Assembly: GCF_013112485.1 (NCBI RefSeq)
Contig: NZ_JABFHG010000001.1
Coordinates: 372,001-436,000, forward strand
Length of the DNA: 64,000 nucleotides
Source of the DNA: Roseicella sp. DB1501
GTDB lineage: Bacteria; Pseudomonadota; Alphaproteobacteria; Acetobacterales; Acetobacteraceae
Direction: 5' to 3'
Positions 20,614 through 40,666 of the stretch are shown in pieces. The notes below the pieces were generated by a model, which had not been told where the DNA came from, made no database searches, and saw nothing but the letters and a program-made list of their open reading frames with translations. Both the position numbers and the translations under genes were made by a program. How positions within the stretch are numbered: the stretch's first letter is position 1; each line of letters opens with the position of its first letter.

Positions 20614-21447
20614 ATGACGCATCTGGTGCCGCACGGGAGCATCCTGGCTCTCGCCGCGGCGATCTTGGCCGTCGCCGTGACGGGGCATCGCTCGGCGGCG
20701 CAGACCTCGGACCCGCCTGGCAGCGACGCGGAACTGGCCCAGAAGCTGCAGAATCCCATCGCTGACCTGATCAGCGTACCCTTCCAGAACAACCTGGATT
20801 TCGGTGCCGGCAGCAAGGATGACGGCTTCGGCTACACGCTCAACCTGCAGCCGGTCATTCCCTTTCGCCTGACCGACGATTGGACGCTGATCACCCGCAC
20901 CATCGTGCCGTTCATCTACCGCGAGCGCTACACGCCGGACCACGAGGCCGGGCTCGGAGACGTCACGCAGAGCTTTTTCTTCTCGCGCCGCACGAGCGTC
21001 CCTGGCCTGACCTGGGGCGTCGGGCCGGCCGTGCTCTGGCCGACCGCGACCCGCCCCGCCTTCCAGGCACGGCAATGGGGCATCGGGCCAACCGGCATCC
21101 TGGTGCAGACGATCGGGTCCTGGACCTTCGGCGCCCTGGCCAATCACCTCTGGGGCTTCGCCGATTCCGCCAACCGGCAGGGTCGGCCCGACCTCAACCA
21201 GACCTTCCTCCAGCCTTTCGTATCGCACAACTTCAAGGGCGGCTTCGCGCTGACCGCGACGCTGGAGGCAACCTACGACTGGAGCGACCGGCAATGGACG
21301 CTGCCGCTCGCCATCGGCGGCAGCCAGCTGGTGAAGCTCGGCAAGGTGCCGATGAACCTCGTCGGCCAAGCCCGCTACTGGCTCGACGGCCCGAGCGACG
21401 CACCGCAATGGGGCCTGCGCTTCGCGGCCGTCTTCGTTCTCCATTGA
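20614..21447 (+). CDS. Outer-membrane beta-barrel, phenol-MetA/'neuromedin U' type
   Basis: A 277-aa exported protein with signal peptide GSILALAAAILAVAVTGHRSAAQ and a mature part of amphipathic strands (LAQKLQNPIADLISVPFQNN, FGYTLNLQPVIPFRLTDDW, GLGDVTQSFFFS), ending in a barrel-like AVFVLH. This pattern is that of the MetA-pathway/transporter-like barrel family often seen beside sulfatases. The ATG at 20614 is chosen because sequence upstream is non-family and the signal peptide starts here. It is the first gene of an 11-gene plus-strand run, 11 bp before the next barrel. Substrate passage is inferred. Confidence 0.8.
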   Translation: MTHLVPHGSILALAAAILAVAVTGHRSAAQTSDPPGSDAELAQKLQNPIADLISVPFQNNLDFGAGSKDDGFGYTLNLQPVIPFRLTDDWTLITRTIVPFIYRERYTPDHEAGLGDVTQSFFFSRRTSVPGLTWGVGPAVLWPTATRPAFQARQWGIGPTGILVQTIGSWTFGALANHLWGFADSANRQGRPDLNQTFLQPFVSHNFKGGFALTATLEATYDWSDRQWTLPLAIGGSQLVKLGKVPMNLVGQARYWLDGPSDAPQWGLRFAAVFVLH

Positions 21448-21458
21448 AGGCCGACGGC

Positions 21459-22232
21459 ATGCGCAAGCCGATCCTCATCCTGACCGCCCTGGTCCCCCTG
21501 ACGATGCCGTCGCCGGGACAGGCGCAACCGAGCCAACTCGCATCGGGCTGGACGCTCGATCTCTCGGTCTACAGCTGGGCCACGGCCGTCACCGGCACCA
21601 CCGGCGCGGGGCCGCTGCAGGTGAAGATCGACAACAGCGCCATCGATACCATCCGCCAGTCGGATTCGCTGCTGTCCTTCATGGCGCGCGGCGAGCTGCG
21701 GCGCGGCCGGCTCGGCTTCTTCCTGGATGGCGAGTATTCCGATCTCGGCTATGACGACGTCCGCCTCGGCCCGGCCAGGGTCGATGCGACCAGCGTGATA
21801 GGCATGCTCGAATTCGGCGCGGCCTATGAGATGGCCGGCGGCCGCTTCGGCCGGACGCAGGACTTCCCATGGGCGGTCGACCTGCTGGGCGGCGGCAGGT
21901 GGATGCACCTGCACAACAAGATCTCGATCGTCCAGGTCTCGACGACGAAGAGCACGACCGACTGGGTAGATCCCTTCGCCGGCGCGCGGCTGCGTGGCCG
22001 CCTGGGCGAGAGGTGGGAATACATCCTGCGGGGCGACATAGGCGGCGGCATCGGCGGCAGCCGCTTCGCCTGGCAGGTCGTCTCCACCATCGGCTACCGC
22101 TTCACGATGTTCGGGCTCGAGAGCACGGCGCTCCTCGGCTACCGCGCCCTCTCGCAGGACTATGAGAGCGCCAAGCTCGTCTACGACACGACCATGCATG
22201 GCCCCGTCATCGGCCTGAACATTCGCTTCTGA
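21459..22232 (+). CDS. Outer-membrane beta-barrel protein
   Basis: A 257-aa protein with a signal peptide (MRKPILILTALVPLTMPSPG, QAQ cleavage) and an all-beta mature region: GWTLDLSVYSWATAV, RGRLGFFLDGEYSDLG, RWEYILRGDIGGGIGGSR, closing with terminal Phe (GLNIRF), the signal for BAM insertion. It is 11 bp downstream of the first barrel and 35 bp before the FGE-like gene. No precise family is recognised; an outer-membrane role in sulfated-substrate uptake is inference from context. Confidence 0.75.
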   Translation: MRKPILILTALVPLTMPSPGQAQPSQLASGWTLDLSVYSWATAVTGTTGAGPLQVKIDNSAIDTIRQSDSLLSFMARGELRRGRLGFFLDGEYSDLGYDDVRLGPARVDATSVIGMLEFGAAYEMAGGRFGRTQDFPWAVDLLGGGRWMHLHNKISIVQVSTTKSTTDWVDPFAGARLRGRLGERWEYILRGDIGGGIGGSRFAWQVVSTIGYRFTMFGLESTALLGYRALSQDYESAKLVYDTTMHGPVIGLNIRF

Positions 22233-22267
22233 AGGGGTGACGCGCATGCCGGAGGAGTGCGGCGGGG

Positions 22268-22942
22268 ATGACGCAGGGCCAGCCAGGGGCCGGGACGGGT
22301 GCGGCGCAGCGCGCCATGCGGCCGGTGCCGGGCGGCGGGTTCCTGATGGGGTCGGACCGCCATTACCCCGAGGAACGCCCGGCCCACCGCATGCAGGTGG
22401 CTGCCTTCTCGATGGACGCGACCGCGGTGACGAATGCCGCATTCGCCGCCTTCGTCGCGGCGACGGGCTATGTCACGGTGGCCGAACGCCCGATCGACCC
22501 GGCGCAGTATCCCGGTGTGCAGCCGGAGCTTCTGGCGCCCGGCAGCCTGGTCTTCCGCAAGACCGACGGGCCCGTGGACACCTCCGATGTCCGGAACTGG
22601 TGGAGCTGGGTGCCGGGTGCCTGCTGGCGCTTCCCGGAGGGGCCGGGCAGCGATCTGACTGGCCGTTCCGACCATCCGGTGGTGCAGGTGGCCTATGAGG
22701 ACGCCCTGGCCTTCGCCGACCCCTCCTGCTGCGGCGCCGAGGCGGTCCTTGCCGCGCGGGAGGCGAGCATGGACCCGCGACAGCCTGCCATCCGCATCCC
22801 ACGCAAGGTGGTCAAGGGCGGCTCCTTCCTCTGCGCGCCCAGCTATTGCCGCCGCTACCGGCCGGCGGCCCGGCACGCGCAGATGGTCGATTCCGGATCG
22901 AGCCATATTGGCTTCCGCTGCATCCGACGCGCCAGGCCCTGA
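22268..22942 (+). CDS. Internally deleted formylglycine-generating enzyme (SUMF1/FGE) homologue
   Basis: FGE oxidises the active-site cysteine of sulfatases to formylglycine. This 224-aa version keeps the N-terminal part (RPVPGGGFLMGSDRHYPEE, DATAVTNAAFAAFV) and the C-terminal active site KGGSFLCAPSYCRRYR with C189 and C194. It lacks about 97 residues between A150 (base 22717) and D151. The missing part, present as residues 159-255 of the full-length FGE at 37834-38823, contains the LPTEAEWE and NVWEW motifs and the calcium-site region. The frame is intact. It is probably not catalytic alone; it could be a decaying gene or a binding-only subunit. It lies 58 bp before the sulfatase. Confidence 0.85.
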   Translation: MTQGQPGAGTGAAQRAMRPVPGGGFLMGSDRHYPEERPAHRMQVAAFSMDATAVTNAAFAAFVAATGYVTVAERPIDPAQYPGVQPELLAPGSLVFRKTDGPVDTSDVRNWWSWVPGACWRFPEGPGSDLTGRSDHPVVQVAYEDALAFADPSCCGAEAVLAAREASMDPRQPAIRIPRKVVKGGSFLCAPSYCRRYRPAARHAQMVDSGSSHIGFRCIRRARP

Positions 22943-23000
22943 CGCCTGCGCGGCTGCATCGGCCGCAGGTGCAGAAGGTCCCAACCGAGGAGACGAGAGA

Positions 23001-24616
23001 ATGAGCGACGACACGGCAAAACCACAGGCCTCCCGCTCCGCACGGCGCGACATGCTGCTCGGCAGCGCGGCCGGCCTCGCCGCCACGCTCTTCGCGCCGG
23101 CCAGGGCACAGCAGAGCCCGGCCCCGGCGCCGCAGCCGGGCGCCGGTTCCGGTCAGAAGCCGAACATCCTGGTGATCTACGGCGACGATATCGGCTTGTG
23201 GAACATCAGCTACAACAACCGCGGCGATATGCAGTACCGCACGCCGAACATCGACCGCATCCATGCCGAGGGCGCGACCTTCAGCGACTATTACAGCGAG
23301 CAGAGCTGCACTGCCGGCCGTGCCGCCTTCATCACCGGCCAGTCCCCGGTGCGCACCGGCCTCACCAAGGTCGGCGTGCCGGGCGCGGCGATCGGGTTGC
23401 AGAAGGAAGACCCCACCATCGCCGAGCTGCTGAAGCCGCTCGGCTACGCCAACGGCCAGTTCGGCAAGAACCACCTAGGCGACAAGGACGAGTACCTGCC
23501 GACGCAGCACGGCTTCGACGAGTTCTTCGGCAACCTCTACCACCTGAACGCCGAGGAGGAGCCGGAGCGGCCGAACTATCCGCAGGACCCGGAATTCCGC
23601 CGCCGCTTCGGCCCGCGCGGCGTGATCCGCAGCTTCGCCGATGGCCGCATCGAGGATACCGGGCCGCTCAACAAGAAGCGGATGGAGACGATCGACGACG
23701 AGACGACGGCCGCCTGCATCGACTTCATCGACCGCCAGCACCGCGCGGGCAAGCCCTTCTTCATCTGGCACAACGCCACGCGCATGCACATCTACACGCA
23801 CGTCCCGCCGGCCTATGATGGTAAGACGGGCCTGAATTTCTATGCTGACGGCATGGTGCAGCATGACGACCATGTCGGGTTGATCCTGAAGAAGCTCGAC
23901 GACCTCGGCATCGCCGACAACACCCTCGTGGTCTATTCCACGGATAATGGCCCGCATTTCAACGAATGGCCGGACGGCGCCATCACCCCCTATCGCAGCG
24001 AGAAGGACACGAATTGGGAAGGCGGCTACCGCGTGCCCTGCGCCGTCCGCTGGCCCGGGAAGATCCCGGCCGGCAAGCGCATCACTGGCATCGTGCAGGC
24101 CAATGACTGGATGCCCACCCTGCTCGCCGCCGCCGGCGTACCGGATATCAAGGAGAAGCTGCTGACCGGCCATGCCGCGGGGGACAAGACCTTCAAGGTG
24201 CATCTCGACGGCTACAACCAGCTTCCCACCCTGACCGGTGACACGCCGAGCCCGCGCAAGGAATTTTTCTACTTCAACGATGATGGTGATCTGGTCGCCG
24301 TGCGCCACGAGCGCTTCAAGATCATCTTCGGCGAGCAACGCGCGCACCAGTTCCAGGTCTGGTCGGAACCTTTCGTGCGGTTGCGCGTGCCCTTGCTCAT
24401 CGACCTTAAGATGGATCCTTTCGAGCGGGCGCCGGTTGACTCAAACAACTACAACCATTGGCTGATCACCAACGCGTTTCTGATCCAGGCGTCGCAGGGA
24501 ATCGTTGCCAGGTTCGTGGAGAGCTTCAAGGAGTTTCCGCCGCGGCAGGAGCCGGCCTCCTTCAACGTCGACCAGATCCTGCGGCAGATGACGCGGGCGG
24601 CGAGCGGGGTCGGGAA

Positions 24617-24620
<4 letters not shown>
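23001..24620 (+). CDS. Exported type-I sulfatase 1 (arylsulfatase family)
   Basis: Periplasmic sulfate-ester hydrolase, 539 aa. An RR-type leader (SARRDMLLGSAAGLAATLF) suggests Tat export after cytoplasmic cysteine activation. The metal aspartates are in YGDDIG (D62, D63); the FGE target is C103 in CTAGR (the CxAxR form), followed by AAFITGQ; the distal metal motif STDNGPHFN and the KTFKVHLDGYNQLP block are present. ATG 23001 follows a GAGG/GAGA ribosome site. The stop overlaps the MoxR start by 4 bp. A close paralogue of the same length is at 31952-33571. Substrate unknown. Confidence 0.93.
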
Positions 24621-25633
<1,013 letters not shown>

Positions 25634-25637
25634 GCGC

Positions 25638-26603
25638 ATGGCGGAGGCCGCTCCCGATCCGCGCCTGATCCCGACGCTCGGCAGCCTGATCCGGGCGCAG
25701 TTCCAGGCGCGCGGCTTCTCCTTCCTGCACCGCCAGCCGGTGACCAGCCTGCTCGCCGGCCGTCGCGCCTCGCGCATCCGCGGCCGTGGCCTCGCCTTCG
25801 AGGAGATCCGCGCCTACCGGCCGGGTGACGACGTGCGGCAGATCGACTGGCGGGCCAGCGCACGCACCGGCCGCACCCAGACCCGGGTCTTCACCGAGGA
25901 GCGCGACCGCCCCACCCTGCTGCTGGTCGACCTCACCGCCGCGACGGTCTTCGGCAGCGTGCACGCCACCAAGACGGCGGTGATCGCCGAGAGCGCCGCC
26001 CTCGCCGCTTGGCTGGCCCTGCGCTTCGGCGACCGCGTCGGCGCCATCCTGTTCGGCGATGACGGGCTGGAGGAGCACCGGCCGCAGCGCAGCCGGGCGG
26101 CGGTGATGCGGGTGCTGGGGGCGATCGCCGGGCGCGCTGCGGCCCTGGCCGGGGCGCCGCCGCGGCCGGTCGAGGCCGCGCCGCTCAATGCCGCGCTCGC
26201 CCGCGCCGAGGCGGTCGCCGGCCATGACTGGCTGGTGCTGGTGGCGGCCGACCTGCAGGCCTTCGACCTCGCCGCCGGGCGGGCGATCGGTCGGCTCGCG
26301 CGGCACAACGACGTGGTGGCGATCGGCGTCTCGGACCCGCTCGAGCGCGCGCTGCCGGCCGCCCCCTGGCGCGGCCGCGCCACCGATGACGGCCGCCGGG
26401 TCGTGGTGCTCGACCCGGCGCGGGGCGGGCTCGGCGCGCAGGTCGCCGCCGAGCATGCACGCCGGATCGAGGCGGTGCGGCGGGGCGGGTTGCGGCTGCA
26501 GACGCCGGTGCTGCCGATCGGGACCGAGGAAGACGCCGCGCCGCAGCTCCGCCGCCTGCTCGGCGGGGCGGCGGCGCCGCATCGCCGCGGGCCGGGCGCA
26601 TGA
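25638..26603 (+). CDS. DUF58 protein of the MoxR module
   Basis: A 321-aa cytoplasmic DUF58 protein, a VWA-like fold usually partnered with MoxR. The family signature GRGLAFEEIRAYRPGDDVRQ, then DWRASARTG (around residues 47-75) is complete, followed by a Rossmann-like half with RPTLLLVDLTAATVFG, the degenerate MIDAS edge, and GDRVGAILFG. It starts 4 bp after the MoxR stop and overlaps DUF4381 by 4 bp. It probably docks the ATPase to the membrane VWA proteins. Confidence 0.92.
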   Translation: MAEAAPDPRLIPTLGSLIRAQFQARGFSFLHRQPVTSLLAGRRASRIRGRGLAFEEIRAYRPGDDVRQIDWRASARTGRTQTRVFTEERDRPTLLLVDLTAATVFGSVHATKTAVIAESAALAAWLALRFGDRVGAILFGDDGLEEHRPQRSRAAVMRVLGAIAGRAAALAGAPPRPVEAAPLNAALARAEAVAGHDWLVLVAADLQAFDLAAGRAIGRLARHNDVVAIGVSDPLERALPAAPWRGRATDDGRRVVVLDPARGGLGAQVAAEHARRIEAVRRGGLRLQTPVLPIGTEEDAAPQLRRLLGGAAAPHRRGPGA

Positions 26604-27049
26604 ACCCGGCCGACATGCCGAGCCGCGAGGCGATGCAGGGGCTCCTGGCGCCGCCGCCCGTGCCCTTCTGGCCGGCGACGCCGGCCTGGGCGGCGCTCCT
26701 GCTGCTGCTGCTCGCCCTCATCGGCTGGCTCGCCTGGCGGGGCTGGCGCGCCTGGCGCCGCGACGCCTATCGGCGGGAGGCGCTGCGGGCGCTCGCCGGG
26801 GCTGGGCCGGCGGCGATCGCCGCGATCCTCAAGCGCACCGCGCTCGCCGCCTGGCCACGCGAGCGGGTGGCGGCGCTCAGCGGCTCCGGCTGGGCCGCCT
26901 TCCTGCGCCGCAGCGCGCCGCGCGCCGGGCTCGACGCGGCGACGGCGGCGGCGCTCGCCGCCCTGGCGCATGCGCCCGCCGCGGCTGCGACGCCGGGGCT
27001 GCGCGATGCCGCCGCCCGCTGGATCCGCCGCCATGACCCTCGGCTCTGA
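26600..27049 (+). CDS. DUF4381 small membrane protein
   Basis: A 149-aa protein with one transmembrane helix (PAWAALLLLLLALIGWLAW, residues 28-46) and a cytoplasmic Arg/Ala-rich helical tail (RREALRALAGAG, then LKRTALAAWPRERVAALSGSGWAAFL), the DUF4381 pattern. It overlaps both neighbours (4 bp and 17 bp), so coupling is tight. Its role in MoxR modules is unknown; it may link DUF58 to the VWA membrane proteins. Confidence 0.85.
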   Translation: MNPADMPSREAMQGLLAPPPVPFWPATPAWAALLLLLLALIGWLAWRGWRAWRRDAYRREALRALAGAGPAAIAAILKRTALAAWPRERVAALSGSGWAAFLRRSAPRAGLDAATAAALAALAHAPAAAATPGLRDAAARWIRRHDPRL

Positions 27050-28022
27050 TCAGTTCGCGCTCGATCACCCCTGGGCGCTGGCGCTGCTGCCGCTGCCGCT
27101 GCTTGCCTGGCTGCTGCTGCCCGCCTATCGCCCGCCCGGGGTGGCGCTGCGCCTGCCCGCGCTCGGCCGCCTCACCGCCGGGGCCGGCGCCGCCCCGCCC
27201 GCGGCGGCGCGTCTGGGCCGCTGGCGCGCGGCGATGGCGCTGCTCGCCTGGGCCTTGCTCGTCATCGCCCTCGCCGCGCCGGTGCGCATCGAGCCGCCGC
27301 TGACGCGCGAGACCGGCGGCCGCGACGTGCTGCTCGCCCTCGACCTCTCGGGCTCGATGGCGACCGAAGACATGGCCGGGCCGGACGGCGGCAGGCTCAG
27401 CCGGCTGGACGCCGCGCGCGCGGTGCTGAAGCAGTTCGTCGCGCGGCGGAAGGACGACCGGCTCGGCCTCATCGTCTTCGGCAGCGCGGCCTTCGTGCTC
27501 GCCCCCTTCACCCGCGACCACGACGCGCTGCTCGCCCTGCTCGACGAGACCTTCCCGCGCATGGCCGGGCCGCAGACGATGCTCGGCGACGCCATCGGCC
27601 TCGCCGCGCAGAGCTTCGAGCGCGCGCAGGTGTCCGGGCGGCTGCTGGTGCTGCTCACCGATGGCAACGACACCGGCAGCCGCGTGCCGCCGGCCCGCGC
27701 CGCGGCGATCGCCGCCGGGTTCGGGGTGAAGATCGACGCGGTCTCGCTCGGCGATCCGGCGGCGGCGGGCGAGACCGCGCTCGACCTCGCGGCGCTGGAC
27801 GCGATCGCGGCGGCCACCCACGGCGCGCATCTGCATGCCGATGATCCGGCGGCGCTGGCCGAGGCCTACCGGCAGATCGACGCCATGGAGCCGACGCCGG
27901 CCCAGGCCGTCTCCTGGCGGCCGCGCAGCCCGCTCTTCGCCTGGCCACTCGGCGGCTTCGCCGGGCTGGCCGTGCTGCTGCTCGGTCCCGGCCTCGCCCC
28001 CGCGGGGCGGCGGGCGGCATGA
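27033..28022 (+). CDS. VWA-domain membrane protein (BatA-like)
   Basis: A 329-aa inner-membrane protein with N-terminal membrane spans (ALALLPLPLLAWLLLPAY and MALLAWALLVIALAAPV), a VWA domain with an intact MIDAS site (LLALDLSGSM about residue 103; TDGNDTGS), and a C-terminal membrane helix before the stop. ATG 27033 gives the short family N-terminus (MTLGSDQFALDHPWAL) and overlaps DUF4381 by 17 bp. It is the MoxR client/adaptor-type component; metal-dependent protein binding is expected from the MIDAS. Confidence 0.9.
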   Translation: MTLGSDQFALDHPWALALLPLPLLAWLLLPAYRPPGVALRLPALGRLTAGAGAAPPAAARLGRWRAAMALLAWALLVIALAAPVRIEPPLTRETGGRDVLLALDLSGSMATEDMAGPDGGRLSRLDAARAVLKQFVARRKDDRLGLIVFGSAAFVLAPFTRDHDALLALLDETFPRMAGPQTMLGDAIGLAAQSFERAQVSGRLLVLLTDGNDTGSRVPPARAAAIAAGFGVKIDAVSLGDPAAAGETALDLAALDAIAAATHGAHLHADDPAALAEAYRQIDAMEPTPAQAVSWRPRSPLFAWPLGGFAGLAVLLLGPGLAPAGRRAA

Positions 28023-29545
28023 GCGCGCTGCTCGCCGCCTTCCATTTCCTTCGCCCCTGGTGGCTGCTGCTGGCGCTGGCCGGGCCGGCGGCGCTGTGGC
28101 TCGAGCGGGCCAGCCGGCGCGCGGCGGGCGGCTGGCGCGGCGTGGTGGCGCCGCATCTGCTCCGGGCGCTGCTGGTCGCCGATGGCGCGCGGCCGCGCCT
28201 CCGCCCGGCGACCGTCGCACTGCTGCTCTTCCCCGTGCTGGCCCTCGCTCTCGCCGGCCCGACCTGGCGGCGCGAGCCAAGCCCCTTCGTCGCCGACAGC
28301 GCGCGGTTGGTGGTGGCCCTCGATCTCTCCCGCGCCGCCGAGCCCGCGCTCGCCGCCGGGAAGCGCAAGGTGCGCGACCTGCTGATCGCCCGCGCCGGGA
28401 CGCGCATCGGCCTTCTCGCCTATGCCGGCACCGCGCATCCGGCGCTGCCGCCGACCGACGATCCGCGGCTGGTGGAGAGCTATCTCGACGCGCTCTCGCC
28501 CCAGGTGATGCCGCGCGACGGCACGGCCGCGGGCGCCGCCCTCCGGGCCGCGCTGGCGATGCTCGGCGACGCGCCGGGCGGCGCGGGCACGGTGGTCTTC
28601 GTCACGCCCGGCGTGCCGGCGACCGAGGCGGCGGCGTTCCGGGCCGCGGCGGCGGAGGCAGGGCCGCATGCGGTGGTGGTGCTGGCGACCGGTCCCGGCC
28701 CCCTCGCCGGCGCGCCAGGCGCCCGGCTGGTCGCGGCCACGCCCAACGGCGCCGATGTCGCGCGGGTCGCGGGCCTCGCCCTCAGCCACTTCGCCGCCGC
28801 GCGGGCCGAAGACCCGACCCAGCGCTGGCAGGATATGGGCCCCTGGGTGGCGCTGCTCGCCGCGCCCCTGGCGCTGCTCTTCGCCCGCCGCGGCTTCCTG
28901 GCAATGGCGCTGCTGCTGCTGCTGCTCGGCGCGGCGCCGGCGATGGCAGCCGATGGCGATCTCGGCTGGTTCTGGCGGCTCTGGCTGACCCCCGACCAGC
29001 GGGCACAGCTGCTGCTCGACCGCGGCGAGCCGGCGCGCGCCGCGGGGTTGTTCACCGACCCGGTGCGGCGCGGCGTTGCCCTCTACCAGGCCGGCGACTA
29101 CCAGGGCGCGGCCACCGCCTTCGCCCAGGCGGGCACGGCCATGGCGGCCTACGACCTCGGCAATGCCCATATGATGCTGCCGCGCGACTGGGAGGCGGCG
29201 ATCGCCGCCTATGACCGCGCGCTGGCGCTGCAGCCCGACTTTTCGGCCGCCCGCGCGAACCGCGAACTGGCCCAGGCCTTCCTGCGTGTCTGGCAGGCCG
29301 CCTCGGCGGATCGCGCCGCCAACCAGACCGACGACCCCGGCGCCCGGCCGCCCGATCCGAGCCAGCTGGTGGCCGACCAGCCGCCGCAGCCCCCGGGGCA
29401 GCAGCCGCAGCAGCCGGGCGATACGCCCGGCCAGGGCCTCTCGGATGGCGAGATCCAGGCGATGTGGATGCGCCGCGTCGGCGGCACCCCGGCCGATTTC
29501 CTGCGCCTGCGCTTCGCCCGCCAGGCGGCGGGCGGCGCGCCGTGA
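28019..29545 (+). CDS. VWA-TPR membrane protein (BatB/BatC fusion)
   Basis: A 508-aa protein joining a VWA domain to TPR repeats. N-terminal membrane spans (about residues 10-28 and 60-80) precede a degenerate VWA: the MIDAS DxSxS is VALDLSRAA, so metal binding is doubtful. After a membrane segment (FLAMALLLLLLGAAPAMA) comes a periplasmic TPR part (GVALYQAGDYQGAATAFAQA, NAHMMLPRDWEAAIAAYDRA), then a Pro/Gln-rich low-complexity linker and GEIQAMWMRRVGGTPADFL. It overlaps BatA by 4 bp and BatD by 4 bp. Confidence 0.88.
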   Translation: MSALLAAFHFLRPWWLLLALAGPAALWLERASRRAAGGWRGVVAPHLLRALLVADGARPRLRPATVALLLFPVLALALAGPTWRREPSPFVADSARLVVALDLSRAAEPALAAGKRKVRDLLIARAGTRIGLLAYAGTAHPALPPTDDPRLVESYLDALSPQVMPRDGTAAGAALRAALAMLGDAPGGAGTVVFVTPGVPATEAAAFRAAAAEAGPHAVVVLATGPGPLAGAPGARLVAATPNGADVARVAGLALSHFAAARAEDPTQRWQDMGPWVALLAAPLALLFARRGFLAMALLLLLLGAAPAMAADGDLGWFWRLWLTPDQRAQLLLDRGEPARAAGLFTDPVRRGVALYQAGDYQGAATAFAQAGTAMAAYDLGNAHMMLPRDWEAAIAAYDRALALQPDFSAARANRELAQAFLRVWQAASADRAANQTDDPGARPPDPSQLVADQPPQPPGQQPQQPGDTPGQGLSDGEIQAMWMRRVGGTPADFLRLRFARQAAGGAP

Positions 29546-30840
29546 GGCGCCTCGCCCTGCTGCTGCCGCTGCTCGGCCCGCCGGCGGCGATGGCGCAGGA
29601 GCAGCCGGAGCTGCTGCTGCGGCTCACCCTCTCGCCGCAGCAGCCCGTGGCGGTGAAGCAGCGGGTGACGGTGACGCTGACGGCGCTGACGCCAGTGCGC
29701 TTCATCGACCCGCCGCGCTGGCCCGATCTCGTCATCGCCAGCGGCCGTGCCGTGGTGCTGCCCGAGGCCGATACCGTGCCGGGAACCGAGCGGGTCGGCG
29801 GCGCGAGCTATGCGGCGCTGCAACGCAGCTACGCGCTGTTCCCGGCGAGCCCCGGCGAGATCGTGCTGGCGCCGGTGGAGATGCGCCTGCGCGTGGGCGG
29901 CGCCGCAGGCCAGCCCGTCGAGGCGAGTGCCGCCACCGCGCCGGCGCGCCTCACCGCGCGACTGCCGCCCGGCATCGGCGATGTCGGGCGCCTCGTCGTC
30001 TCGCCCGACTTCCGGCTGGAGAGCTCGACCGAGGGCGCCGAGGGCACGGTGCGCGTCGGCCAGGCGGTGACGCGCCGGCTGCGCATGGCGGCCGAGGACA
30101 GCACCGCCATGCTGCTGCCGCCGGCCCCCTGGGGCGAGCCCGCGAGGCTGCGCGTCTATGCCGATCCGCCGGTGCTGCAGGATCGCACCGAACGCGGCAC
30201 CCTGCATGCCGAGCGGCGCGAGAGCGCGGCCTATGTGCCGCAGCAGCCGGGCCCGGTCGAGTTGCCGGGCTTCGCCGTGCAATGGTTCGACCCCCGCCGC
30301 GGCACCCTGCAGAGCCTGGCGGTGCCGCCGGTTCGCTTCACCGCATTGCCCGCCGCCGAGGTCGTCGCCCCGGCGGGGCGGCGCTCCCCGGCGCTCCTGG
30401 CCGCGCTCGCAGCGGGGCTGCTGGCCATCGGCGCGCTCGGCTGGTGGCTGGCCCGGCGACGCGCCCGCCGCCTGCCCTCGCCGCTCGCCGCCCTCGCCCT
30501 CGCCTGCCGGGCCGATGACGGGCAGGCGGCCATGACGGCGCTCTACCGCTGGGCGGAGGCCCATTCGGCGCGCGGCGAGGAGCGGGGCGTGGCGAGCCTG
30601 GCCGAGCGCGCGGGCGTGCCCGCGCTGGCGACCGAGGCGACCGCGCTCGAGGCGAGGCTCTATGGCGGCGCCCCCGGCCCGACCTGGCGTGGCGAGCCGC
30701 TGCTCGCCGCGGCCCGGCAGGCGGAGCGACGGCTGCGCCATCCCGCGCGGGCCGGCGGGACGAAGGCCGCGCTGCCGCCGCTCAACCCTTCGGGCGCCGC
30801 ATCCGCGCCGCGGCTGACCGAACCACGCTGGGCGCGATAG
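29542..30840 (+). CDS. BatD-like protein of the MoxR module
   Basis: A 432-aa exported membrane protein. I use GTG 29542, which overlaps the previous stop (GTGA) and gives a signal peptide RRLALLLPLLGPPAAMAQ; the upstream ATG at 29464 would only extend into the VWA-TPR gene. Beta-rich BatD domains follow (ELLLRLTLSPQQPVAVKQRV, FALQRSY-like strands, RVGQAVTRRLRM), then a C-terminal membrane helix (LLAALAAGLLAIGALGWWLA, about residues 292-311) and a cytoplasmic tail. It completes the MoxR-VWA membrane machine. Confidence 0.85.
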   Translation: MRRLALLLPLLGPPAAMAQEQPELLLRLTLSPQQPVAVKQRVTVTLTALTPVRFIDPPRWPDLVIASGRAVVLPEADTVPGTERVGGASYAALQRSYALFPASPGEIVLAPVEMRLRVGGAAGQPVEASAATAPARLTARLPPGIGDVGRLVVSPDFRLESSTEGAEGTVRVGQAVTRRLRMAAEDSTAMLLPPAPWGEPARLRVYADPPVLQDRTERGTLHAERRESAAYVPQQPGPVELPGFAVQWFDPRRGTLQSLAVPPVRFTALPAAEVVAPAGRRSPALLAALAAGLLAIGALGWWLARRRARRLPSPLAALALACRADDGQAAMTALYRWAEAHSARGEERGVASLAERAGVPALATEATALEARLYGGAPGPTWRGEPLLAAARQAERRLRHPARAGGTKAALPPLNPSGAASAPRLTEPRWAR

Positions 30841-30856
30841 CAAGCAGGAGGATCGC

Positions 30857-31864
30857 ATGTCGCCTATCTCCACCCTGCCCCGCCGGAGCCTTGCCGGGCT
30901 GCTGCTCGCTGCGGCGGCCACGGCCCCGGCCCAGGTCCACGCGCAGGCGCAGGCGGATCCGCTGCCTTCCTGGCGCGACGGCGAGGCCAGGCGGGCGATC
31001 CTCGACTTCCTGCGCGCGGTGACGACGGAGGGCGGCCGCGAGTACCGGCCGCCGGAGGAGCGCCTCGCCGTGTTCGACAATGACGGGACGCTCTGGGTGG
31101 AGCAGCCGATCTACACCCAGGTCGTCTTCGCCTTCGACCGCCTGCGCGCCATGGCGCCGCAGCACCCGGACTGGGCGAGCCGCGAGCCCTTCCGCGCGGC
31201 GATCTCCGGGGACAAGGCGGCCCTCGCCGCGGCCGGCGAGAAGGCGATCGTCGAGATCATCGCCGCGACGCATACCGGCATGACGCCGGAAGCCTTCCGC
31301 CAGACCGCGCTGGACTGGCTGGCGACCGCCCGCCACCCGCGCTTCGACCGGCCCTACACCGAATGCATCTACCAGCCGATGCTGGAGGTGATGCGGCTGT
31401 TCCGGGCGCAGGGCTTCCGCACCTGCATCGTCTCCGGCGGCACCACCGAGTTCATGCGCCCCTGGGCCGAGCGGGTCTATGGCGTGCCGCCGGGGCAGGT
31501 GGTCGGCACCACCTTCAAGCTCCGCTACGAGCTGCAGCGGAACCGGGGCGAGCTGCTGACCCTGCCGGAGATCGACGCGGTCGATGACGGGCCGGGCAAG
31601 CCCGTGGGCATCTCGCGCTTCATCGGCCAGCGGCCCCTCGCCGCCTTCGGCAATTCCGATGGCGATTACGAGATGCTGCAATACACGACCACGGGCGATG
31701 GCCGGCGCCTCGGCATGATCGTGCACCACGATGATGCCGAGCGCGAATTCGCTTACGACCGGCTCTCGCCCATCGGCCGGCTCGACCGCGCGCTGCGCGA
31801 TGCGCCGGCGGCGGGCTGGCAGTTGATCTCGATGCGGCAGGATTGGGGGCAGGTGCTTCCGTGA
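30857..31864 (+). CDS. Exported HAD-superfamily phosphatase
   Basis: A 335-aa phosphatase with a signal peptide (RRSLAGLLLAAAATAPAQVHAQ). HAD motif I is FDNDGTLW (D74 nucleophile, D76), motif II is IVSGGTTEF, and motif IV is FGNSDGDYEM. The long cap between I and II resembles phosphoserine-phosphatase-like proteins. AGGAGG lies 7 bp before the ATG. It ends the plus-strand run, 16 bp after BatD, followed by a strong hairpin. Export of a HAD enzyme with a sulfatase suggests release of phosphate and sulfate from the same outside substrates (inference). Confidence 0.88.
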   Translation: MSPISTLPRRSLAGLLLAAAATAPAQVHAQAQADPLPSWRDGEARRAILDFLRAVTTEGGREYRPPEERLAVFDNDGTLWVEQPIYTQVVFAFDRLRAMAPQHPDWASREPFRAAISGDKAALAAAGEKAIVEIIAATHTGMTPEAFRQTALDWLATARHPRFDRPYTECIYQPMLEVMRLFRAQGFRTCIVSGGTTEFMRPWAERVYGVPPGQVVGTTFKLRYELQRNRGELLTLPEIDAVDDGPGKPVGISRFIGQRPLAAFGNSDGDYEMLQYTTTGDGRRLGMIVHHDDAEREFAYDRLSPIGRLDRALRDAPAAGWQLISMRQDWGQVLP

Positions 31865-31951: not shown

Positions 31952-33571
31952 TCAGTCGCCGCCGCCGGATGCCGCGCTTTCCATCTGCTGTATCACGCGG
32001 TCCAGGTTGAAGCTGTCCGGCTTCTGCCGCAGCGGGAAATCGCGGAAGGTCTGGAGGAACTGCCCCGCCATGGCCTGGGCCGGCACCAGCAGGAAGACGC
32101 GGCGGATCAGCCAGTCATTATAGGTGTTGCTGCTGTCATCGGCCCGCTCATAGGGGTCCATGCGCAGGTCGAAGAGCTTCGGCACCCGCAGATCGACGAA
32201 GGGCTCGCGCCACACGCCGAAGCCGACGCCCCTGTTCTCCATGAACACGACCTTCCAGCGCTCGTAGCGCATGGCGACGAGCTGGGTGTCGTCGTTGAAG
32301 TAGAAGAATTCCTTGCGCGGACCCTCCTGGGTCTGGCCGGTCAGCAGCGGCAGCTGGTTGTAGCCGTCCAGATGCACCTTGTAGGTCCGGCCACCCACGG
32401 CGAAGCCGGCTTTCAGCTTGTCCTTGATGTCGGTGTCGCCGGCCGCGGCGACCAGGGTGGGGAACCAGTCCATCCCGGCGAAGAGCTGGTTGGTGACGCC
32501 GGACTGGATCTTGCCGGGCCAGCGGATCGCCGCCGGCACGCGATAGGCGCCTTCCCAATTCGAATTCTTCTCGCTCCGAAAGGGGGTGACGGCCGCATCC
32601 GGCCAGGCATTGAAATGCGGGCCGTTATCGGTCGAGTAGACGAGGATGGTGTTGTCGGCGATGCCGAGGTCGTCGATCTTCTTCAGGATCTTCCCGACCC
32701 AGTCGTCATGCTGCAGCATGCCGTCGGCATATTCGTTCAGCCCGGATCTTCCCCGCCACGCTTCCGGCACATGCGTATAGAGGTGCATGCGCGTGGCATT
32801 CAGCCAGACGAACATCGGCTTGCCGGCCGCGTGCTGGCGATCCATGAAGTCCAGGCCGGCGACGAGGAACTCGTCATCGACCGTTTCCATGCGCTTCTTG
32901 TTGAGCGGTCCGGTATTCTCGATGCGCCCGTCCGCCCAGCTCTTGATCACGCCCCGCGGGCCGAAGCGACGGCGGAATTCGGGATTCTGCGGATAGTCGG
33001 GATTCTCGGGCTCCTCCTCGGCGTTCAGGTGGTAGAGATTGCCGAAGAACTCGTCGAAGCCATGCGCGGTCGGCAGGTGCTCGTCGCGGTCGCCGAGATG
33101 GTTCTTGCCGAACTGGCCGGTCGCGTAGCCCATGCCCTTCAGGACGGTGGCGATGGTCGGATCCTCGGCTTGCATGCCGGCCTTCGCGCCAGGAAGCCCG
33201 ACCTTCGACAGGCCGGTGCGCAAGGTGCACTGGCCGGTGATGAAGGTGGAGCGGCCCGCGGTGCAGGATTGCTCGGCATAGTAGTCGGTGAAGGTCATGC
33301 CTTCGTTGTGGACGCGGTCGATATTGGGCGTGCGGAAGCCCATCAGGCCGCGCGTATAGTAGCTGATGTTCGACTGGCCGACGTCATCGCCGAAGATGAC
33401 CACGATGTTCGGCTTCCGATCGCCCGATGCCGACGCCGTGCCCTGCGCGGATGGCGCGGGCCGAGCCGCCGGCTGCTGCGATTGGGCGAGCGTCGGCCCG
33501 GCGAAGGCGGGTGCTGCGACGCCGGCGATGCTGCCGAGCAGCATGCTGCGGCGGTTCGGTGCCTGACTCAT
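31952..33571 (-). CDS. Exported type-I sulfatase 2 (arylsulfatase family)
   Basis: Paralogue of sulfatase 1 with the same length (539 aa) and the same key positions: a Tat-like leader (NRRSMLLGSIAGVAAPAF), metal aspartates D62/D63 (FGDDVG), target cysteine C103 in CTAGR, and STDNGPHFN. Long identical runs such as DEFFGNLYHLNAEEEPE show recent or conserved duplication. ATG 33571 has a GGAGGGG ribosome site. It converges on the sulfatase-1 operon and lacks the barrel/MoxR partners, so it may be separately regulated. FGE activation must come from the gene at 37834-38823 or an FGE elsewhere in the genome. Confidence 0.93.
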   Translation of the reverse strand: MSQAPNRRSMLLGSIAGVAAPAFAGPTLAQSQQPAARPAPSAQGTASASGDRKPNIVVIFGDDVGQSNISYYTRGLMGFRTPNIDRVHNEGMTFTDYYAEQSCTAGRSTFITGQCTLRTGLSKVGLPGAKAGMQAEDPTIATVLKGMGYATGQFGKNHLGDRDEHLPTAHGFDEFFGNLYHLNAEEEPENPDYPQNPEFRRRFGPRGVIKSWADGRIENTGPLNKKRMETVDDEFLVAGLDFMDRQHAAGKPMFVWLNATRMHLYTHVPEAWRGRSGLNEYADGMLQHDDWVGKILKKIDDLGIADNTILVYSTDNGPHFNAWPDAAVTPFRSEKNSNWEGAYRVPAAIRWPGKIQSGVTNQLFAGMDWFPTLVAAAGDTDIKDKLKAGFAVGGRTYKVHLDGYNQLPLLTGQTQEGPRKEFFYFNDDTQLVAMRYERWKVVFMENRGVGFGVWREPFVDLRVPKLFDLRMDPYERADDSSNTYNDWLIRRVFLLVPAQAMAGQFLQTFRDFPLRQKPDSFNLDRVIQQMESAASGGGD

Positions 33572-33927
33572 CCGGTTCCCCTCCATCACTCCGCGTCCGC
33601 GATCCTGCGACGCGGCGTCCGTCGACGCGCTTCGGTGCGGCGCGATGCTCCATGCCGCCGTTCGGAACGCTCGGCCGATTGCGGGAGAGGCGGCCGGCGG
33701 GCGCTCGGTCGGGGCGTCTTCCGCCACGCGACCGAGACGGGAAGCGAGGCCGCTGCCGCTCCTGGCCGGAAAGCCGGATCCATGTCCTCATCCCCGCAAT
33801 CCGTCGCTGCGGAAATTCTATTTGTGCCGCGTGAGTGCCGGTATGAGGTGACGACCCCAGGCGATGCGCTTCGTCACCCCGGGGAGCCATGGGCTGGCAT
33901 GGAGTGCAGGCTGTTCTCGAGGGCCGG
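33572..33927. other. Intergenic region, no gene seen
   Basis: This 356-bp stretch lies upstream of sulfatase 2 and downstream of the response-regulator gene, both on the minus strand. I see no credible coding frame. It should hold the sulfatase 2 promoter; part of it (about 33800-33850) is less GC-rich, but I cannot assign boxes with confidence. Confidence 0.4.
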
Positions 33928-34587
33928 CTACCGATCCGGCCGTCCCGGCCCTGCGAAGGTGATGTTGTTCCGCTCGGCGAAGCGCACGACATCCAGCACG
34001 CTATGCGCGTGGATCTTCCGCATCAGCGAGGCGCGATGCGATTCCACCGTCTTGAAGCTGATGCCGAGCCGGTGCGCGATCTCCTTGTTGGCGAGGCCTT
34101 CGCAGATCGCCTGCGCCACCTCCCGCTCCCGCAGGGTAAGCGGCTCCTGCTCGGCGAGCTTGGTGCCGGCGCCGCGCAGATACTCATCGAGTATATGGAC
34201 AGACGCGGACGGGTTGAGGAACGGCTTTCCGGCCGCCAGCGCTTCGACGGCGGCCATGATCAAGCGGTCCGCATCGGATTTGAGCAGATAGCCCCGCGCC
34301 CCGGCAGAAAACACTTCCCGGATGAGTTCCTCGCTGTCTACCATGGTGAAGATCAGGACTGCGCTCTTCGGGCTGACCTGCCTGAGGTGGCGGGTTGCGT
34401 CCAATCCGTTCATCTTCGGCATGGCAATGTCGATGATGACGACATCCGGCTGCAGGTCACGTGCCAGTTCTATGCCGGCTCGTCCGTCAGCCGCTTCGCC
34501 GACGACGGTCCAATCCGCCCGTGTCTCGAGCATCGCGCGCAGGCCGCGCCGGACCACGCCATGATCATCGAGGATCAGGATATTCAC
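33928..34587 (-). CDS. NarL/FixJ-family response regulator
   Basis: Two-component transcription regulator with receiver and LuxR-type HTH domains. From GTG 34587 it is 219 aa: acidic pair D7/D8, phosphoacceptor D53 (VIIDIAMPKMNG), K103 (YLLKSDAD), and the C-terminal HTH LTLREREVAQAICEGLANKE, then IAHRLGISFKTVESHRASLM. The sequence before GTG includes GGAGG 10 bp upstream; a TTG one codon earlier has 7-bp spacing and is an alternative start, while the distant ATG at 34626 would place this ribosome site inside the gene. It is divergent from its likely kinase (274-bp gap) and could control the nearby sulfatase genes. Confidence 0.9.
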   Translation of the reverse strand: MNILILDDHGVVRRGLRAMLETRADWTVVGEAADGRAGIELARDLQPDVVIIDIAMPKMNGLDATRHLRQVSPKSAVLIFTMVDSEELIREVFSAGARGYLLKSDADRLIMAAVEALAAGKPFLNPSASVHILDEYLRGAGTKLAEQEPLTLREREVAQAICEGLANKEIAHRLGISFKTVESHRASLMRKIHAHSVLDVVRFAERNNITFAGPGRPDR

Positions 34588-34861
34588 CAAGGGTTCACCT
34601 CCCCGGTCTCGGCACCGTGCATACAATCAACGCGCGAGGTGATGCAGGTCTGTCGTCAGGTAGTTTAGACGATCCGGAGGCCGGTGTTTATCGGGTCCAC
34701 ACCTGAGGCATGGCTTTTCGGGTTGCTTTTGCCCACAATGAAATAATTTGGCGGGGATTGCTTCGTGCGACTTGCCCGCACCTCGGCGAAGCCGCGGTTC
34801 GTCCAAGGCAGGCCCGCGGCGTTCTGCTCGGCCCGCAACCCCGTCGCGACAGGAGAGGAAC
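34588..34861. promoter_or_regulatory. Divergent promoter region of the two-component pair
   Basis: The 274 bp between the divergent regulator and kinase starts contain an AT-richer core (about 34700-34760). Both promoters must lie here. An AGGAGAGG ribosome site at the right edge fixes the kinase start. No operator was identified. Confidence 0.45.
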
Positions 34862-36658: not shown

Positions 36659-36784
36659 GATGACGTCCGCAGCATCGCTTCCGGTATTGCCGCCTCGGTG
36701 CAGGGCGGATGGAAGCTGGGAGGGCAGCCGGCGACATGCCCCGACTTGTCCCGGAAAGCGGCGGTCATCATGGAGACGATTGCG

Positions 36785-37141
36785 ATGCAGGCTTACAATC
36801 GCGGGCGATGGGTTCTGCTCCTCGGCCTGCTGGCCGCCACCGCCGCCTGCTCGACCAGGCAGGGTTTCGAGCAACGGATGGCGGCCCATATCGGCCGAAG
36901 CGAGGGCGACCTCGTCGCCGCCCTCGGCGTTCCCACCCGCACCTACCAGGCCGATGGGCAGCGCTTCATCCAGTATGACCGGCAGCAGATCCTCGCCGAT
37001 GCCTATCCCGGCTGGGGCTGGCGCTGGGGCGGCCCGACGGTGGAGGTCCTGGATTGCCATGTGACCTTCGAGATCGAGCGGGATCGCGTGCAGAGCTTCA
37101 CCAGCCGCGGGAATGACTGCGTCGCGCGGCCCCCATCCTGA
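36785..37141 (+). CDS. Small BamE/SmpA-like lipoprotein
   Basis: A 118-aa lipoprotein: an Arg-containing N-region, hydrophobic core WVLLLGLLAATAAC with the lipobox cysteine at about residue 22, then AHIGRSEGDLVAALGVPTRT, then FIQYDRQQILAD, a pattern like the SmpA/OmlA (BamE) fold. Two further cysteines (DCHV, NDCVARP) may form a disulfide. ATG 36770, five codons upstream, is a possible alternative start. It follows the kinase by 126 bp; no functional link is evident. Confidence 0.68.
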   Translation: MQAYNRGRWVLLLGLLAATAACSTRQGFEQRMAAHIGRSEGDLVAALGVPTRTYQADGQRFIQYDRQQILADAYPGWGWRWGGPTVEVLDCHVTFEIERDRVQSFTSRGNDCVARPPS

Positions 37142-37833: not shown

Positions 37834-38823
37834 TCAGGGCGCGTCGCGTCGGACGCAGCGAAAGCCGATATGGCTCATGCCGCTATCCACCATCTGCGCA
37901 TGGCGCGCCGCGGGACGGTAGCGACGGCAATAGGAGGGTGCGCACAGGAAGGATCCGCCCTTGACCACCTTGCGCGGCACGCGGATGGCGGGCTGGGCGG
38001 GATCGAAGGAGCCTTCGAGCGCCGGCCCGCGGGGATTCTGCGGCGTGCAGCAGGGATGGGCCGCGGCGGCGCCGTGACCTCCGCCCCACCAATCCGTCGT
38101 CCACTCCCATACATTGCCGCAGATCTCGAACAATCCGTAGCCATTGGGGGGAAAGCTGCGGACGGGACAGGTGCCGGCGAAGCCATCGGCCTCGAAATTC
38201 CGCCAGGGAAAGGGACCCTGCCAGGTATTCGCCAGATGCCGGCCGTTCGGCGCGAACTCGTTGCCCCAGGCGAATTCGGCGCCATCGAGCCCACCGCGTG
38301 CGGCACACTCCCACTCGGCCTCGGTCGGCAATGCCTTGCCGGCCCAATGCGCGAAGGCCGCGGCATCCTCGAAGGCGACCTGGACGACCGGGTGCCGTTC
38401 CCGCCCCAGGATCGTGCTGCCGGGCCCTTCCGGGGCATGCCAGCAGGCACCGGGAGTCCATTGCCACCAATGGCTGATGTCGCGCAGATCGACACGTCCC
38501 TCGGTCATGCGGAAGACCAGCGATCCGGGGTCGAGCATGGCAGGGTCGGCACCGGGATAGACGGCAGGATCGAGCGGACGTTCGGCGACGGTGCGGTAGC
38601 CGGTCGCCGCGACGAAGCTGGCGAAATCGGCGTTGGTGACCGCGCTGGCATCCATCCAGAACGGATCGACCTGGACGGCATGTGCCGGCCGTTCCTCGGC
38701 ATAATGGGCATCCGAGCCCATCAGGAAGCGTCCGCCCGGAATTCGCACCATGCCCGCATCGGAGACGGACGGGTCGGGCACGGCCTGCCTGTCCGCTGCC
38801 GAGACCTGATCGATGAATGCCAT
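37834..38823 (-). CDS. Full-length formylglycine-generating enzyme (FGE/SUMF1 family)
   Basis: Copper-dependent oxidase converting the sulfatase cysteine to formylglycine, cytoplasmic. The 329-aa protein is complete: MVRIPGGRFLMGSDAHYAEE, LPTEAEWECAARGG, NGYGLFEICGNVWEWTTDWW, and the active site KGGSFLCAPSYCRRYR with C294 and C299. Compared with the shorter copy at 22268-22942 it retains residues 159-255. ATG 38823 is preferred; the extension to 38877 reads into a repeat element. It should activate both sulfatases in this region. Downstream is a DUF502 gene. Confidence 0.92.
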   Translation of the reverse strand: MAFIDQVSAADRQAVPDPSVSDAGMVRIPGGRFLMGSDAHYAEERPAHAVQVDPFWMDASAVTNADFASFVAATGYRTVAERPLDPAVYPGADPAMLDPGSLVFRMTEGRVDLRDISHWWQWTPGACWHAPEGPGSTILGRERHPVVQVAFEDAAAFAHWAGKALPTEAEWECAARGGLDGAEFAWGNEFAPNGRHLANTWQGPFPWRNFEADGFAGTCPVRSFPPNGYGLFEICGNVWEWTTDWWGGGHGAAAAHPCCTPQNPRGPALEGSFDPAQPAIRVPRKVVKGGSFLCAPSYCRRYRPAARHAQMVDSGMSHIGFRCVRRDAP

Positions 38824-38849
38824 GGTGCCGCCGCAACCTGTTGTTTCCA

Positions 38850-38899
38850 GAGCAGATTCACGCGCCCGGGCATTCACGCCCTCCCACGACCTGCTCTAG
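38850..38899. repeat. 50-nt palindromic repeat, family 1, degenerate copy
   Basis: Same 50-nt length and ends (GAGCA...TGCTCTAG) as the copies at 53671-53720 and 56194-56243. The inner stem is only partly paired, but some pairs are compensated (A-T to G-C). It lies immediately upstream of the FGE start. Confidence 0.5.
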
Positions 38900-40591: not shown

Positions 40592-40666
40592 TGGCTGGGG
40601 CGCCAGGATTCGAACCTGGGAATGGCGGTACCAAAAACCGCTGCCTTACCGCTTGGCTACGCCCCA
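40592..40666 (-). tRNA. tRNA-Gln (anticodon UUG)
   Basis: On the minus strand the 75-nt gene folds as a full cloverleaf: acceptor TGGGGCG/CGCCCCA, anticodon stem GCGGT/ACCGC with loop TTTTGGT (anticodon TTG), T-arm GGTTCGAATCC, discriminator G and an encoded CCA (40594-40592). It follows ispE by 26 bp. The 3' end faces the decayed element at 38.9-40.5 kb. Confidence 0.96.

What the first reader, a model, noticed from the sequence alone, without database searches (positions are those of the whole stretch)
20614..31864. An exported sulfatase welded to a complete MoxR-VWA machine in one 11-gene operon
Two outer-membrane barrels, an FGE-like protein, a sulfatase, MoxR ATPase, DUF58, DUF4381, VWA, VWA-TPR, BatD and an exported HAD phosphatase run in one direction with gaps of at most 58 bp. 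From the sulfatase through BatD the gaps are -4, 4, -4, -17, -4 and -4 bp. MoxR starts inside the sulfatase stop codon. MoxR/VWA systems are known to support maturation of certain enzymes (for example methanol dehydrogenase); the coupling here suggests a sulfatase or its envelope assembly as client. I know of no described system of exactly this composition.
Basis: partly seen in the sequence, partly recalled or inferred. Interest (0 to 1): 0.78.

Follow-up and report, generated by a model that had tools for sequence, protein, structure and literature searches.

The report
Sulfatase operon with its own MoxR
A group of bacterial sulfatases with an unusual active-site motif travels across several bacterial phyla next to its own branch of an ATP-driven, membrane-spanning MoxR/VWA machine, which suggests (but does not prove) that the machine helps make these exported enzymes work.

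Summary
One correction: the operon's FGE gene has lost 97 central residues in frame and is probably dead. An intact FGE and a second sulfatase of the same subfamily lie within 15 kb.

The proposed coupling survives its main computational test. Both window sulfatases belong to a subfamily with CTAGR instead of CxPxR. In 299 genomes sampled without regard to MoxR, 23 of 55 such sulfatases lie within 10 kb of a MoxR gene (0.37 expected); choline-sulfatase-type controls give 0 of 27. The linkage occurs in Alpha- and Gammaproteobacteria, Bacteroidota, Calditrichota and Desulfobacterota. The linked MoxRs fall on one side of a fully supported branch (44 of 53 linked); the generic Bat-type MoxRs on the other have no sulfatase (0 of 40).

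Best explanation: an Mxa-like MoxR-DUF58-VWA-BatD machine, dedicated to maturing or activating the exported, Ca2+-dependent CTAGR sulfatase. The client is inferred, not shown. Some genomes have the sulfatase without such a MoxR, so it is not universally required. I found no description of this pairing in the library searched.

The parts
20614..21447 (+). Outer-membrane beta-barrel channel 1
   Evidence: AlphaFold2 pLDDT 81, all-beta barrel-like model; best PDB match 4rl8, COG4313 channel, E 5e-8; homologue in the same operon place in L185 and L190
21459..22232 (+). Outer-membrane beta-barrel 2
   Evidence: all-beta AlphaFold2 model, pLDDT 79; homologues of 26-30% near some related sulfatases and MoxR modules
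22268..22942 (+). FGE-like gene with a 97-residue in-frame internal deletion, probably non-functional
   Evidence: Pfam PF03781 only in two end pieces; alignment with intact FGE
23001..24620 (+). Exported (Tat-like RRDMLLG) S1 sulfatase, CTAGR motif
   Evidence: PF00884 E 1e-49; active-site D62 D63 C103 R107 K156 H158 H263 D315 N316 K335 invariant in 10 relatives
24617..25633 (+). MoxR AAA+ ATPase of the sulfatase-linked branch
   Evidence: AAA_3 E 2e-63; Walker A GLPGVAKT, Walker B VLVDEIN; trees
25638..26603 (+). DUF58 protein (MxaS homologue), no TM predicted
   Evidence: PF01882 E 3e-36; profile matches MxaS
26600..27049 (+). DUF4381 protein, one TM
   Evidence: PF14316 E 2e-24; TM 23-49
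27033..28022 (+). Membrane VWA protein (BatA/MxaC type), MIDAS DLSGS intact
   Evidence: VWA_2 E 2e-16, BatA model E 8e-38; MxaC match; motif
28019..29545 (+). Membrane VWA-TPR protein (BatB/BatC fused), degenerate MIDAS DLSRA
   Evidence: VWA_2 E 1e-7, sub-threshold TPR matches; motif
29542..30840 (+). BatD-like protein, signal-like N-terminus, one TM near 282-304
   Evidence: DUF7939 E 1e-14; TM
30857..31864 (+). Exported HAD-IB phosphatase-like protein (FDNDGT)
   Evidence: PF12710 E 1e-12; homologue in 16 of 31 clusters
31952..33586 (-). Second CTAGR sulfatase of the same subfamily, Tat-like signal (RRSMLLG)
   Evidence: 66% identity to the first; a different sub-branch of the tree
37834..38877 (-). 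Intact FGE with the Cys pair (SFLCAPSYC), the likely modifier of both sulfatases
   Evidence: PF03781 E 3e-78 over the full domain; genome search
33928..34626 (-). Response regulator (REC-LuxR), possible regulator of the cluster
   Evidence: Pfam; homologue near the cluster in L185
34865..36658 (+). Histidine kinase, possible partner of the regulator
   Evidence: Pfam HisKA_3; homologue near the cluster in L190

Best explanation
The operon encodes a sulfatase and its dedicated maturation or activation machine. FGE (here supplied by the intact copy at 37834-38877) turns the cysteine of CTAGR into formylglycine in the cytoplasm, and the folded sulfatase leaves by the Tat route. A membrane-spanning MoxR-DUF58-DUF4381-VWA-VWA/TPR-BatD machine, built like the MxaRSACKL machine for methanol dehydrogenase, uses ATP to remodel the exported sulfatase into its active form, most plausibly by helping to seat the active-site Ca2+. 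The outer-membrane barrels would admit the sulfated substrate, and the HAD protein would act on a companion ester. Shown here: gene content, conservation of linkage, a distinct MoxR branch, component homology to Mxa. Inferred: one transcript, the sulfatase as client, the Ca2+ step, localisation, and the roles of the barrels and HAD.
For: Linkage: 23 of 55 CTAGR sulfatases in a MoxR-blind sample lie under 10 kb from MoxR against 0.37 expected, in 17 of 30 genomes; choline-sulfatase-type controls 0 of 27. Breadth: Alpha- and Gammaproteobacteria, Bacteroidota, Calditrichota, Desulfobacterota. Dedicated branch: 93-row MoxR tree, SH-aLRT 100, 44 of 53 linked on one side; on the other 1 of 40, and that one is a 22% FGE match without a sulfatase; 8 label changes against 31 in shuffles (the 59-row tree agrees with 100/100). 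Co-occurrence: 12 of 15 examined sulfatase-bearing genomes against 1 of 22 others carry the branch (p 3e-6). On the sulfatase tree the link changes 22 times, so it was re-formed or lost repeatedly; in one family the sulfatase beside MoxR was swapped for a different sub-branch. Sulfatase is the commonest extra partner, 27 of 31 clusters. Mxa homology: MxaR, MxaS, MxaC and MxaL matched by profile. mxa genes include those required for Ca2+ insertion (PMC3615186); NorQD, another MoxR/VWA pair, inserts metal (PMC13036017). The Ca2+-ligand positions of S1 sulfatases are invariant.
Against: Eight of 30 sampled genomes have the sulfatase but no MoxR at E <= 1e-80, and three more that were examined have only the generic branch. 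CTAGR occurs equally in linked and unlinked sulfatases, so the motif is not what needs the machine. HAD, FGE and a multihaem cytochrome are also linked. DUF4381 has no Mxa counterpart, and MxaA/BatD and MxaK/TPR similarity is weak. No experiment.
Confidence: 0.5

Rival explanations
1. Sulfated-substrate utilisation island: the MoxR machine and the sulfatase serve the same nutritional or envelope task and are co-regulated and co-transferred, but the machine does not touch the sulfatase; it stabilises the envelope or another transport step.
For: Sulfatases without a close MoxR exist. Outer-membrane barrels, HAD, DUF1254 and a two-component system share the neighbourhood. Bat-type modules are otherwise linked to envelope stress (own knowledge). 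Three same-genus genomes lack the sulfatase, so the island is patchy.
Against: Other island genes vary, while sulfatase and machine stay together in 27 of 31 clusters. A separate MoxR branch, rather than the generic Bat-type one present in the same genomes, is used. The start-stop overlap with the sulfatase suggests coupled translation.
Confidence: 0.3
2. The real client is another linked exported protein: the HAD phosphatase-like protein, the multihaem cytochrome-TPR protein of gammaproteobacterial clusters, or an outer-membrane barrel.
For: HAD is in 16 of 31 clusters and directly neighbours the MoxR module in L031, L177 and the window. A cytochrome-TPR protein lies between sulfatase and MoxR in Vibrio. 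Known MoxR clients are often metal or redox enzymes.
Against: Sulfatase is commoner than each linked gene counted (27 against 16 HAD, 13 FGE and 6 cytochrome).
Confidence: 0.13
3. Ordinary gene crowding: a Bat-type operon that happens to be near a sulfatase, with no shared function.
For: Bat-type MoxR operons are common in this phylum (143 of 299 genomes).
Against: 23 observed against 0.37 expected, control sulfatases 0 of 27, and phylogenetic clustering.
Confidence: 0.02

Closest known systems
mxaRSACKL genes of methanol dehydrogenase (Ca2+ insertion/assembly)
   Same: MoxR, DUF58, two VWA proteins, a TPR protein and a possibly BatD-like protein encoded beside an exported Ca2+ enzyme; MxaR, MxaS, MxaC and MxaL are matched by profiles built from this module
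   Different: Client candidate is a sulfatase, not a PQQ dehydrogenase; DUF4381 has no Mxa counterpart; VWA and TPR fused; MxaR itself is only 30% identical to this MoxR
Bat-type (Bacteroides aerotolerance) MoxR-BatA/B/C/D operons, generic gammaproteobacterial form
   Same: Same six-part composition and order
   Different: The generic form sits on the other side of a fully supported MoxR branch and has no sulfatase, HAD or credible FGE neighbour
NorQ/NorD and RavA/ViaA MoxR-VWA pairs
   Same: MoxR with VWA partner acting on a specific enzyme; NorQD inserts a metal (PMC13036017)
   Different: Two-protein systems without the membrane Bat parts, other MoxR subfamilies, other clients
S1 arylsulfatases with FGE maturation
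   Same: PF00884 fold, formylglycine cysteine, Ca2+ ligands; closest solved chain 7aj0
   Different: CTAGR motif in place of CxPxR; MoxR machine attached
MoxR-vWA ternary conflict systems (PMC7159879)
   Same: MoxR + VWA, and some carry an FGE-fold domain
   Different: Different MoxR (AAA_3 213 bits against bpMoxR 62 bits); no effector or third component seen; membrane Bat parts instead

Membership tests
MoxR AAA+ ATPase (MRP-like) | AAA_3 domain with Walker A, Walker B and lid | tested here: met
   AAA_3 E 1.7e-63, AAA_lid_2 E 7e-20; GLPGVAKT and VLVDEIN
Bat-type MoxR module | MoxR, DUF58, BatA and BatB VWA, TPR, BatD together | tested here: met
Bat-type MoxR module | Placement with generic Bat MoxRs in the tree | tested here: not met
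   Falls on the other side of a branch with 100/100 support and SH-aLRT 100
Mxa machine (mxaRSACKL) | Homologues of MxaR, MxaS, MxaC, MxaL | tested here: met
   Profile E 4e-63, 5e-11, 9e-23, 3e-10
Mxa machine (mxaRSACKL) | Homologues of MxaA and MxaK | tested here: inconclusive
   MxaA against BatD E 0.009; MxaK against the TPR part E 5e-5
Mxa machine (mxaRSACKL) | Encoded with methanol dehydrogenase MxaF | tested here: not met
   Operon neighbours are a sulfatase, FGE, barrels and HAD
S1 sulfatase | Sulfatase domain with catalytic and Ca2+ residues | tested here: met
S1 sulfatase | Canonical CxPxR modification motif | tested here: not met
   CTAGR here and in 96 of 99 subfamily members in which a motif was read
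Formylglycine-generating enzyme, operon copy 22268-22942 | Complete domain including the central core | tested here: not met
   97 residues missing; split Pfam match
Formylglycine-generating enzyme, copy 37834-38877 | Complete domain with the Cys pair | tested here: met
   PF03781 positions 3-255 of 255
MoxR client relationship | Sulfatase activity depends on MoxR | not testable with these tools
   Needs mutants and enzyme assays
MoxR-vWA ternary conflict system | bpMoxR/VMAP-type core with effector genes | tested here: not met
   bpMoxR far below AAA_3; no effector among the neighbours

The most novel reading that the evidence does not exclude
A MoxR subfamily has specialised as a dedicated ATP-driven maturase of exported CTAGR sulfatases, giving sulfatases a second maturation step beyond formylglycine formation (for example Ca2+ seating across the inner membrane), spread across several phyla.
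Probability: 0.4. Interest if true: 0.85.

Novelty: new variant of a known kind. Interest (0 to 1): 0.7.

Why it matters
Few clients of MoxR/VWA machines are known, and sulfatase maturation is thought to end with formylglycine formation. A phylum-spanning tie between one MoxR branch and one sulfatase subfamily gives a specific, testable client for a widespread orphan machine. It may also explain why some sulfatases are hard to obtain active in foreign hosts (inference).

Tried and rejected
Chance adjacency: rejected. CTAGR as the reason a MoxR is needed: rejected, it is equally common in unlinked sulfatases. Methylobacterium crusticola MoxR regions as an mxa reference: neither was the mxa cluster; Methylobacter psychrophilus L196 was used instead. 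Conflict-system reading from PMC7159879: rejected on domain scores. Literature: MoxR with sulfatase, arylsulfatase, sulphatase or formylglycine, and sulfatase/DUF58/VWA combinations, gave no paper on this pairing as far as titles, abstracts and the passages read show; the library is open-access only. A sigma-70 scan gave no usable promoter. The MoxRs placed on the tree were chosen by me for spread, not drawn at random; the 299-genome linkage count does not have that bias, but Vibrionaceae contribute several of its links.

Full report
1. Observation. Eleven genes at 20614-31864, plus strand, were re-found with gaps 11, 35, 58, -4, 4, -4, -17, -4, -4 and 16. The MoxR ATG overlaps the sulfatase TGA. 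Pfam and NCBIfam assign FGE-sulfatase, S1 sulfatase, MoxR, DUF58, DUF4381, BatA-like VWA, VWA-TPR, a BatD-like protein with DUF7939, and HAD-IB. The two leading genes model as barrels; the first resembles the COG4313 channel 4rl8.

2. Two corrections. The operon FGE lacks 97 central residues in frame although its C-terminal Cys pair remains, so it is probably dead; relatives have an intact FGE at this place (L185, L187, L190). An intact FGE (37834-38877) and a second sulfatase (31952-33586), 66% identical to the first, stand on the other strand, with a two-component pair between them. Genome-wide there are three Pfam sulfatases and two MoxRs at E <= 1e-20. The third sulfatase carries canonical CTPSR and lies on another contig.

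3. Sulfatase subfamily. The motif is CTAGR in 96 of 99 subfamily members in which it could be read, linked or not. CTAGR is described as a substrate of the AtsB-type iron-sulfur enzyme of Methanosarcina mazei, in contrast to CTPSR for classical FGE (PMC8068374). The ten catalytic and Ca2+ positions are invariant in ten relatives (position roles from established S1 sulfatase structures, own knowledge).

4. Conservation of the link. A profile of ten relatives brought 80 loci from many phyla. About a quarter hold the MoxR module within 10 kb, including Echinicola, Galbibacter, Vibrio, Photobacterium, Aliivibrio, Shewanella, Marinobacter, Marinobacterium, Pseudomonas, Pantoea, Bosea, Bradyrhizobium, Rhizobium, Caldithrix and Desulfoluna. 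Complete FGE-sulfatase-MoxR-DUF58-DUF4381-VWA-VWATPR-BatD runs occur in other genera of the window's own family.

5. Test against chance. In 299 phylum genomes drawn without regard to MoxR, 30 have the subfamily (55 copies). 23 copies in 17 genomes lie under 10 kb from MoxR; 0.37 copies are expected from MoxR counts and genome sizes. The window's own genome is among them and gives two of the 23 copies. Choline-sulfatase-type genes in the same sample: 0 of 27 in genomes with a listed MoxR, read by eye from the coordinates (one further genome could not be checked because its MoxR place was not listed); Fisher p 7e-7.

6. A dedicated MoxR branch. In the 59-row tree a 15-row generic Bat clade (100/100) has no linked member, while all 34 linked rows lie elsewhere. 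Adding MoxRs from independently sampled genomes (93 rows) keeps the split at SH-aLRT 100: 44 of 53 linked on one side; 1 of 40 on the other, which is a 22% FGE match without a sulfatase. Of the nine unlinked rows on the first side, eight lie in genomes that do carry a CTAGR sulfatase elsewhere. Genomes such as Pseudomonas and Vibrio hold both kinds side by side, so phylogeny of the hosts does not explain the split.

7. The sulfatase side. On the sulfatase tree the link changes 22 times (shuffles 38), with at least 18 forced by supported branches. The link has therefore been lost or formed repeatedly. In the window's family the sulfatase directly before MoxR is of one sub-branch in the window, L185 and L186 and of another in L187, while their MoxRs are close kin. 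Such exchange at a kept position speaks for a functional tie.

8. What it works like. Methylobacter psychrophilus L196 gives a reference mxaFJGIRSACKL cluster, identified by gene order and the PQQ domain of MxaF. Profiles of this module match MxaR, MxaS, MxaC and MxaL; MxaK and MxaA only weakly. mxa genes include those needed for Ca2+ insertion into methanol dehydrogenase (PMC3615186), and NorQD drives metal insertion (PMC13036017). S1 sulfatases hold Ca2+ in the active site (own knowledge). Hence the proposed mechanism: ATP-driven remodelling of an exported Ca2+ enzyme. The Ca2+ step itself is inference from analogy.

9. Limits. Eight sampled genomes have the sulfatase without a close MoxR. 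A Paraburkholderia-Burkholderia-Variovorax-Methylobacterium-actinobacterial sulfatase clade is wholly unlinked. The machine is thus at most a partner of part of the subfamily. Other linked genes (HAD 16, FGE 13, multihaem cytochrome-TPR 6 of 31 clusters) leave other clients possible. One transcript and all activities are untested.

10. Verdict. It is a new variant of a known kind: a Bat/Mxa-like MoxR machine with a new, repeatedly conserved partner.

Noticed in passing
window 22268-22942: FGE gene with a clean 97-residue in-frame internal deletion but intact ends, reading frame and Cys pair; decay of a duplicated maturation enzyme or a binding-only remnant.
   Followed up: partly
L041:11565-13937, L104:17730-20033, L075:7366-9720: Multihaem cytochrome c-TPR proteins recur in gammaproteobacterial and Desulfoluna sulfatase-MoxR clusters; role unexplained.
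   Followed up: partly
window 36698-37141; L185:9484-9789; L186:3915-4241: A small lipoprotein-like protein without Pfam match; its homologue sits inside the MoxR operon between DUF58 and DUF4381 in two relatives but several kb away from the operon in the window.
   Followed up: no
window 33928-36658; L185:256-888; L190:16141-16842: A REC-LuxR regulator and histidine kinase lie in the cluster and have homologues near related clusters; possible regulator of the sulfatase system.
   Followed up: no
G024, G112, G166 (same genus): None of three same-genus genomes has a sulfatase of this kind, so the cluster is accessory; a tRNA-Gln gene lies at window 40592-40666 near its end.
   Followed up: no
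whole CTAGR sulfatase subfamily: The entire subfamily carries CTAGR instead of CxPxR, although FGE genes often lie beside it; which enzyme modifies it in genomes without a nearby FGE is open.
   Followed up: partly
L146 (Ensifer): A MoxR module of the linked branch with FGE and HAD but no sulfatase within 9 kb.
   Followed up: no
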